Assembly: GCA_018817585.1 (NCBI GenBank) | Contig: JAHITE010000098.1 | Coordinates: forward strand, 1-33,675 | DNA length: 33,675 nt | Direction: 5' to 3' | DNA from: Candidatus Omnitrophota bacterium | Lineage (GTDB): Bacteria > Omnitrophota > Gorgyraeia > B26-G9 | Shown here: piece by piece, positions 11,565 to 28,200 of the stretch | Position numbering within the stretch: the first letter of the stretch is position 1 | How the letters are laid out: the number at the start of each line of letters is the position of its first letter | Notes under the pieces: generated by a model | Databases searched by the model: none | What the model was told of the DNA's origin: nothing | Seen by the model: only the letters and a program-made list of their open reading frames with translations | Program-made: the position numbers and the translations under genes

Positions 11565-12136
11565 TTTTGTTAATTGATAATTATGATTCTTTTACTTATA
11601 ATTTAGTGCAGTATTTTGGCGAGCTTGAGCAAAAAGTCAAAGTCGCGCGTAATGATAAAATCAGCATCGCGACAATTAAAAAACTAAAACCGGATTATTT
11701 GGTGATTTCTCCTGGACCCTGCACGCCTAAAGAAGCCGGCATGTCTTGTGAAATTATCGAGACTTTCGCGGGTAAGATCCCGATACTCGGAGTTTGTCTG
11801 GGCCATCAGTGTATTGGGCAGGTGTTTGGCGGGCAAATTGTCCGGGCGGATAAATTAATGCATGGGAAAACTTCCCAGATTTTTCATGACCGTCAGGCGA
11901 TTTTTAAAGGTCTGAGTAATCCGTTTGACGCCACGCGTTATCATTCGCTGGTTGTGCAGGAAAAAGGGCTGCCGAAGTGTCTGAATATAACTGCCCGCTC
12001 GGAAGACGGGATGATCATGGCCATGCAGCACAGAAGTTTGCCGATTTACGGTGTGCAGTTTCATCCTGAGTCAATCTTAACCAAGCAAGGAAAAAAAATT
12101 CTGGAAAACTTCTTAAATCTAAAGGCTAAACCATGA
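11561..12136 (+). CDS. trpG: Anthranilate synthase glutamine amidotransferase component
   Basis: Class I glutamine amidotransferase that releases ammonia for TrpE. The triad is complete: Cys79 in GVCLGHQ, and His168 and Glu170 in QFHPES. The N-terminus [14 protein letters not shown] and the oxyanion strand SPGPCTP are typical of TrpG/PabA. At 191 residues it is a single-domain subunit, not a TrpGD fusion. It could also serve a PabB elsewhere in the genome, as dual-use PabA/TrpG proteins do. Four-base ATGA overlaps join it to trpE and trpD. Confidence 0.95.
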
Positions 12137-26712: not shown

Positions 26713-26741
26713 ATTATAAGATGTTATGAGTGAAGAGTCAA
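26713..26741 (-). promoter_or_regulatory. Sigma70-type promoter of pilT
   Basis: On the minus strand TTGACT (26736-26741) and a consensus TATAAT (26713-26718) are 17 bases apart. The predicted start near 26706 leaves a leader of about 30 bases containing the AAAGGAG site. The -35 hexamer is the promoter-proximal copy of a triplicated heptamer. Confidence 0.8.
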
Positions 26742-26756
26742 TAGTCAATAGTCAAT
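26736..26756. repeat. Three tandem copies of a 7-bp repeat at the pilT -35 box
   Basis: AGTCAAT is repeated three times without a gap. On the minus strand each copy reads ATTGACT and so contains a -35-like TTGACT. The innermost copy has ideal spacing to the TATAAT box; the outer two lie 7 and 14 bases further out. Confidence 0.9.
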
Positions 26757-26784
26757 AATGATGTGTGTCAGAGATTAACCTGAA

Positions 26785-26883
26785 TTATCTAAAGCTAAAT
26801 AAAAACGTTTTAATTTGATAAATAATCCTTGAATGAACATCAATCCCGTAGTAAAATTTAGTATGTGGCTTATAAAAACGCAT
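26785..26883 (-). pseudogene. Truncated IS110-family transposase, N-terminal fragment
   Basis: A 32-codon reading frame. Residues 1-22 (MRFYKPHTKFYYGIDVHSR, then IIY) match the start of IS110-family DEDD transposases, in which the Asp of GIDVH is the first catalytic acid of the RuvC-like fold. The next residues (QIKTFLFSFR, then stop) do not fit the family, so the frame has been joined to unrelated or decayed sequence. It has its own strong AAAGGAGG site five bases before the ATG. It cannot encode an active enzyme: the remaining acidic residues and the Tnp20 domain with its serine are absent. The family call rests on this short but characteristic N-terminus. Confidence 0.72.
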
Positions 26884-26896
26884 AAAGGCCTCCTTT

Positions 26897-26966
26897 GCTG
26901 AGTGTGCGTTCCGTTTATCGGTTCAGCACGATTAAAATTATGCATCCCGACCATTCGGGATCGCAT
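26897..26966 (-). ncRNA. Structured IS110 leader, possible bridge-RNA remnant
   Basis: Two structures lie directly upstream of the truncated transposase. The outer one (26940-26966) has arms ATCCCGA and TCGGGAT around a four-base loop, extended by an ATGC/GCAT pair with one bulged base. The inner one (26896-26928) has arms TGCTGA and TCAGCA enclosing a short CCG/CGG stem; an alternative GTGC/GCAC pairing is also possible. In the IS110 group the bridge RNA is encoded in this position, and a stem-loop followed by an internal-loop structure is expected. Expression and the RNA's real ends are unknown. Confidence 0.35.
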
Positions 26967-27075
26967 GTATATTGTACACAAAGGGGGCCCTTATATTATC
27001 AAGCCTATAGACAGAAAAAAGACGATTAAAAAGAAGAAATATTTTACCGTCGAAGATTTTAAAAAGGTACTCTAA
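26965..27075 (+). CDS. Small basic ORF, possibly a gene tail cut by the IS element
   Basis: A 36-codon frame, MYIVHKGGPYIIKPIDRKK followed by a lysine run and YFTVEDFKKVL. It ends one base before the ATG of the HAMP sensor gene, so it may be translationally coupled to it. The amino acid content looks protein-like, with charged and aromatic residues alternating, but I recognise no family. The ATG lies at the edge of the IS110 leader and has only a weak GGGA ahead of it. The frame stays open upstream into IS sequence. It may be the C-terminal end of a host gene disrupted by the element, or a chance ORF. Confidence 0.3.
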   Translation: MYIVHKGGPYIIKPIDRKKTIKKKKYFTVEDFKKVL

Positions 27076-27076
27076 A

Positions 27077-28200
27077 ATGAAGATAAAGCAAAAACTAATC
27101 TTAGGTTTTTGATAATTGCTTTTTTTTCTGGGATTGCTGGATATCTTGGGGTTAATGCAATTAATACTATCGATGCTGAATTTGATAAAGTTTCAGCTGA
27201 AACTATCCCTATTATTGAAACCCTTGAAGCTTTGAAGTTTGCAGGCCTAAGAATTGTTTCATCTACAAGTGAATTTATTTTAATAAAGTCAGAAAAAGAA
27301 TATGTAGAAAAAAATGAAGAAGGTGAAAAAGGTGAAGAAGGTGAAAAAGGTGAAGAGGAACTAATTGAATATGGAAAAAGTCTCTATAATAATACTTTAA
27401 AACGATATGAAGGTTTAATGAATCGATTTTTTCCTAAAGAAAGAGAATTTCTAGAAAAGATAAGGAGCGCTGGCGGGAACCTTCAAGCATCGAGCTTTAA
27501 AATAATAGAACTAAAGAAACAGGGTATTTTTGGAGAAGAGATTTTAGAAGCGAAAGAAGAGTTTGAAAATAATGAAAAAATTTTTCTTGAGATCATAAAT
27601 AATGTGCTTGCGTACGAAAATAAAGAATTTATGGAAAGAAAAGAGCTTGTTGAATCTGCAATAACAATCGCCTCAAATCGGATAGTCGCAATTTTTATAA
27701 TAGTTTTTATTATGGCGATAGCACTAGGTATTTTTATGGCCTATTCTATCGCGAACCCAATCATAAAACTGAGTCAAGCAGCGATCAGAATAGGTCAAGG
27801 GGAATTAAAAACAAGAGTAAAGATTGAGTCAAGGGATGAAATTAGTTTTCTTGCCGCATCTTTTAATAAAATGGCTGCAGATTTTAGCGGCTCAATTGAA
27901 AGCGAGAAGAAAAAGACAGAGGATTTAATATTATTGAATAAGAAACTTTTTGCTATAACTGCGGAACTACAGATTGCAAAGACAAGTTTAGAACAGAAAA
28001 TTAAAGAGAGAACAAAGGAACTAGAAGAAGAAAGGGATTCTCTTGAAGTTAGAGTCCAAGAGAGAACAAAAGAAATCGCTGAAACAAACGAGAAACTTGC
28101 AAAGAAGCTTAGTGATTTAAGAATCTTTTACAAAGCATCAGTAGAAAGAGAGCTAAAAATGATAAGTCTGAAAAAGAGAATAAAGGAATTAGAATCATAA
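27077..28200 (+). CDS. HAMP-domain membrane sensor with an N-terminal one-base frameshift
   Basis: A sensor with 4-helix-bundle-type input. The ATG at 27077 (AAAAAGG nine bases upstream) encodes MKIKQKLILGF, the usual start of such proteins, but meets TGA at 27110. The rest continues from TTG 27109 in the -1 frame (IIAFFSGIAGYLGVNAI and on, 363 residues). A sixth T in the TTTTT run would join them. The body has a first membrane helix cut by the shift, an extracytoplasmic helical domain (about 20-190 of the downstream frame) with a GEKGEE repeat, a second membrane helix (about 193-215), HAMP (about 215-265) and long coiled coils (QKIKERTKELEEERDSLE). It ends at KKRIKELES without kinase, cyclase or chemotaxis output. 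It may be a decayed gene, a slippage-dependent gene, or an adaptor working with a separate output protein. Confidence 0.75.
27322..27357 (+). repeat. 18-bp tandem repeat inside the HAMP sensor gene
   Basis: Two copies of GGTGAAAAAGGTGAAGAA lie in tandem, the second ending in G instead of A, with a partial copy before them. They encode GEKGEE repeats in the extracytoplasmic domain. The unit is a multiple of three, so copy changes would alter length but not frame. Confidence 0.85.

What the first reader, a model, noticed from the sequence alone, without database searches (positions are those of the whole stretch)
26785..26990. IS110 left-end remnant with a possible bridge-RNA segment
The minus strand carries a strong ribosome binding site, the first 22 residues of an IS110-family transposase (with GIDVH) and, upstream, two adjacent hairpins where this family encodes its bridge RNA. 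The transposase is then cut off. A surviving leader RNA without its recombinase could be a fossil, or a guide RNA usable in trans by an intact relative elsewhere in the genome. I see the peptide and the hairpins; the bridge-RNA reading is inferred from the family.
Basis: partly seen in the sequence, partly recalled or inferred. Interest (0 to 1): 0.65.

Follow-up and report, generated by a model that had tools for sequence, protein, structure and literature searches.

The report
Fossil left end of jumping gene
This is the broken-off left tip of an ordinary bacterial jumping gene (an IS110/IS1111-type insertion sequence); its hairpins look like a leader that hides the transposase start signal rather than a surviving guide RNA, because the guide RNA of this kind of element sits at the other, missing end.

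Summary
The minus strand holds an IS110-superfamily left end: tip near 27002, two hairpins, AAAGGAGG and ATG at 26883, then 22 transposase codons to about 26818. The same genome has a relative at C70 (79% DNA identity over ribosome site plus 22 codons, E 8e-16, same tip), itself cut by a contig end. The bridge-RNA reading is not supported. The nearest complete relative and plasmid relatives have short left ends (76-129 nt), long right ends (about 470-580 nt) and subterminal repeats, and sit beside sequences matching or one letter from the attC core. That is IS1111-attC architecture, whose published guide RNA lies downstream of the transposase. The window has no right end. What survives is a leader whose left repeat pairs with the ribosome site and start codon (-24.5 kcal/mol, p about 0.001); such pairing recurs in 12 of 14 leaders, with different sequences. 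I read it as a control that keeps read-through transcripts untranslated, comparable to ISPpu9. No promoter-like site is found for the remnant. Verdict: a fossil; the repeat/ribosome-site pairing is the modestly interesting part.

The parts
26818..27002 (-). whole surviving left-end remnant of an IS1111-attC-type element
   Evidence: tip TTGATAATATAAGGGCCCCC and ribosome site plus 22 codons both recur in the same genome at C70; homology stops at about 26818
26995..27000 (-). GATAAT, the -10 half of a presumed circle-junction promoter; the -35 half (TTGAC) belongs to the right end, which is absent
   Evidence: right ends of relatives carry TTGAC at a matching distance; the promoter scan lists no promoter-like site using this GATAAT
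26978..26995 (-). left subterminal repeat, 5' arm of the helix that covers the ribosome binding site
   Evidence: duplex -24.5 kcal/mol, shuffles mean -11.0, p about 0.001
26940..26966 (-). hairpin A (ATGC-ATCCCG/CGGGAT-GCAT), also terminator-like; no clear counterpart in the C70 leader
26904..26929 (-). hairpin B (GTGC..CCG/CGG..GCAC); C70 and G220 have the same GTGC/GCAC base with different, self-complementary upper stems
   Evidence: sequence comparison by eye
26881..26898 (-). ribosome binding site and start codon, 3' arm of the helix
26818..26883 (-). first 22 codons of the transposase, then truncated

Best explanation
A dead left-end fragment of an IS1111-attC-type insertion sequence. 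In intact relatives the left subterminal repeat has two jobs. As DNA it is one of the two element ends. As RNA it pairs with the transposase ribosome binding site and start codon, so that transcripts entering from outside are poorly translated. A transcript that starts at the promoter formed when the ends join in the excised circle begins inside this arm and loses part of the helix, so it can be translated. The target-finding RNA is encoded in the right end and is missing here. Shown by sequence: the remnant, the architecture of relatives, the helix and its recurrence. Inferred: translational control, the junction promoter, the loss of function.
For: Tip, ribosome site and 22 codons shared with C70. 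Complete relatives have left ends of 76-129 nt and right ends of about 467-579 nt. Right ends carry conserved blocks such as CTAACTGG and TTGATTAG; CTAAC occurs in every right end examined and in no left end. Right flanks all begin GTT; four of eight match the attC core GTTRRRY exactly and four differ by one letter. The host genome has two full integron integrases. Pairing of left arm with ribosome site: 12 of 14 leaders at p of 0.022 or less, one at 0.057, one (L016) not significant; pooled Fisher chi2 151, 28 df. Modelled cost to open ribosome site plus AUG is at least 2 kcal/mol lower for junction-start than for read-through transcripts in 9 of 14 leaders, 16.2 versus 8.5 in the window. ISPpu9 precedent: mutations weakening the leader raised reporter activity 26-fold (PMC8450116).
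Against: No complete copy is available in this genome: the C70 copy stops at a contig end and no Transposase_20 domain is found, so its own right end was not seen. Longer left leaders (118-153 nt) exist in the window, C70, G192 and G220 copies, and some ISfinder elements have long non-coding regions at both ends (PMC11187229). Consensus folding of the right ends found no conserved structure on my alignments, and exact matching of right-end RNA to targets was not significant. Three leaders (L016, L022, L049) show almost no read-through versus junction difference and two (L025, L048) only 1.6-1.8 kcal/mol. The elements are related, so the pooled value overstates independence.
Confidence: 0.75

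Rival explanations
1. The leader is a bridge RNA of IS110-group type and the fragment can supply it in trans to an intact relative.
For: Stable fold with two hairpins upstream of the transposase; the long-leader copies differ from the short-leader plasmid relatives; a relative exists at C70.
Against: The complete G192 relative has a 129-nt left end and an about 570-nt right end that shares conserved blocks with other IS1111-type elements. No target match of 7 or more bases in left ends except one 8-mer in L024. The closing helix covers the ribosome site and AUG. No promoter-like site for the leader in the window.
Confidence: 0.07
2. A non-autonomous derivative with both ends kept and the middle deleted, mobilisable in trans.
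For: Left end is well preserved; truncation lies close behind the start codon.
Against: No second copy of the repeat within three mismatches in the window apart from the left arm itself, the ribosome-site copy and one weak match at 11986; no right-end block CTAACTGG within 1 kb.
Confidence: 0.05
3. The helix is only a by-product of a repeat that is needed as DNA and happens to resemble a ribosome binding site.
For: The ribosome site resembles the right-end repeat (compare GGAGGCCTTATAA and GGAGGCTCATATG), so a duplicated end sequence would give the same complementarity.
Against: The complementarity reaches the start codon in groups with different repeat sequences (AUAAGG/CCUUUAU, GUCAUGG/CCAGAC, UGAG/CUCA), and the modelled junction start removes much of it in most leaders. 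Neither excludes a DNA-only cause.
Confidence: 0.3

Closest known systems
IS1111-attC group (ISKpn4, ISPst6, ISPa25)
   Same: DEDD transposase, subterminal inverted repeats, long right non-coding end, insertion beside the attC core
   Different: the window copy is a fragment without right end; the members here come from other lineages and I had no ISfinder sequences to compare
ISPpu9 of Pseudomonas putida (PMC8450116)
   Same: transposase leader folds over its own ribosome binding site
   Different: ISPpu9 is described as IS110/IS492 family with a 5'-UTR of about 245 nt and an antisense RNA, Asr9; here the pairing arm is the element's terminal repeat; no antisense RNA was tested
IS10 and IS50 fold-back of read-through transcripts (from memory, not looked up)
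   Same: external transcripts sequester the transposase start
   Different: unrelated transposases and ends
IS621 / IS110-group bridge RNA (PMC11208160)
   Same: same recombinase superfamily
   Different: guide RNA in a long left end, only 2-3-bp repeats

Membership tests
IS110/IS1111 superfamily | DEDD transposase | tested here: met
   window peptide 15/22 to C70; C70 hits PF01548 and G192 hits PF01548 and PF02371; the peptide alone hits nothing
IS1111 group | subterminal inverted repeats at both ends | tested here: inconclusive
   visible by eye in complete relatives; in G192 TCATGGCCCCC against CGGGGACCAT, which my 12-of-19 scan did not report; right end absent in the window
IS1111 group | longer non-coding region downstream of transposase | tested here: met
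   met in G192 and plasmid relatives; cannot be tested on the window copy itself
IS1111-attC group | insertion next to attC core GTTRRRY | tested here: inconclusive
   four of eight relatives match exactly, four differ by one letter; the window's right flank is lost
IS110-group bridge RNA | guide RNA in the left end matching target and donor | tested here: inconclusive
   no convincing match in left ends of relatives, but the right-end matches were not significant either

The most novel reading that the evidence does not exclude
In IS1111-type elements the left subterminal repeat is also an RNA device: it pairs with the transposase ribosome binding site and start codon, silences read-through transcripts, and is partly removed when transcription starts at the circle junction, tying transposase synthesis to excision.
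Probability: 0.35. Interest if true: 0.5.

Novelty: new member of a known kind. Interest (0 to 1): 0.25.

Why it matters
The fragment itself matters little. It shows that a hairpin-rich leader in front of a DEDD transposase should not be called a bridge RNA before the group is settled, since IS1111-type elements keep the guide at the other end. The pairing between terminal repeat and ribosome site, if confirmed, would explain how these elements stay quiet until they excise.

Tried and rejected
Rfam on the window region and on 12 loci: nothing relevant. DNA search of 98 relatives: only the own genome. Viral contigs: the protein profile found no relative and two tip patterns gave hits without a transposase. 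Right-end remnant in the window: not found. Empty site in the same-genus genome G001: the region upstream of pilT is not alignable. Guide-target matching by exact words: not significant. Consensus fold of right ends: no signal; the left-end run stopped on an error because the alignment did not line up the arms. A first right-end alignment was mis-cut. The apparent 35-nt leader deletion against C70 was dropped, because leaders of relatives range from 76 to 153 nt.

Full report
What is there. On the minus strand of 26818-27002 lies the left end of an IS110-superfamily element: tip TTGATAATATAAGGGCCCCC from 27002, hairpin A 26966-26940, hairpin B 26929-26904, AAAGGAGG 26896-26889, ATG 26883, 22 transposase codons, then unrelated sequence. 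The genome (2.64 Mb, 125 contigs) has a second copy at the start of contig C70 with the same tip and 79% identity over ribosome site and 22 codons. That copy runs into the contig end after 213 residues. No C-terminal transposase domain was found in the assembly.

Which group. A relative in G192 is complete: 344 residues, 63% identical to the C70 fragment. Plasmid relatives at 41-47% identity come from Manganitrophus, Alteromonas, Pseudoalteromonas, Catenovulum and Vibrio. In these the transposase is preceded by 76-129 nt and followed by about 467-579 nt. The long right ends share blocks such as CTAACTGG and TTGATTAG. The ends carry inverted repeats a few bases inside, and right flanks all begin GTT: four of eight match the attC core GTTRRRY exactly, four differ from it by one letter. 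The boundaries were set by eye from a shared end motif. Two integron integrases lie in the host genome. Published work places the guide RNA of IS1111-type elements downstream of the transposase and that of IS110-type upstream (PMC11187229, PMC11208160). By this the window fragment has lost its guide region.

What the leader does. In minimum-energy folds of 12 leaders the left repeat pairs with the ribosome-site region. Against dinucleotide shuffles of the left arm, the pairing energy is unusual in 12 of 14 leaders (p 0.022 or less), borderline in one (0.057) and not significant in one. The paired letters differ between groups while pairing is kept. I modelled the cost of opening ribosome site and AUG. 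For a transcript entering from outside it exceeds that for one starting at the presumed joined-end promoter by 2 kcal/mol or more in nine of 14 leaders, by 1.6-1.8 in two, and by 0.6 or less in three. The start site was placed by a fixed offset from GATAAT, so these values are approximate. ISPpu9 gives an experimental precedent for a leader that buries its ribosome site.

State of the window copy. No promoter-like site uses its GATAAT, no right end is present, and the coding region stops after 22 codons. I take it as a fossil. Expression from a neighbouring promoter was not tested.

Limits. The relatives are few and related to each other. The right-end RNA was placed by published rule, length and shared blocks, not by structure or target match, both of which failed or were inconclusive here. 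The literature search for the repeat/ribosome-site pairing in IS1111 elements found none in the open-access library; key older papers were not held, so novelty of that point is uncertain.

Noticed in passing
window 27078-28200, + strand: A sensor-like gene with a HAMP-type region reads MKIKQKLILGF and then a stop, continuing in another frame from 27109 (IIAFFSGIAGYLG); frameshift near the start or assembly error.
   Followed up: no
window 26713-26760, - strand: Tandem ATTGACT units supply a strong promoter-like site (TTGACT-17-TATAAT, 11 of 12) in front of the PilT-like gene.
   Followed up: no
L012 (G000:C105) 26-136: A second, different IS110-type fragment in the same genome: about 37 N-terminal residues, then divergence, at a contig start.
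   Followed up: no
G000:C28:26959-27909 and G000:C113:3529-4488: Two full-length integron integrases in the host genome, so attC sites for such elements may be present.
   Followed up: partly
L011 (G000:C70) 804-890: Palindrome-rich sequence beside the C70 copy may be an attC site; not tested against cassette arrays of this genome.
   Followed up: no
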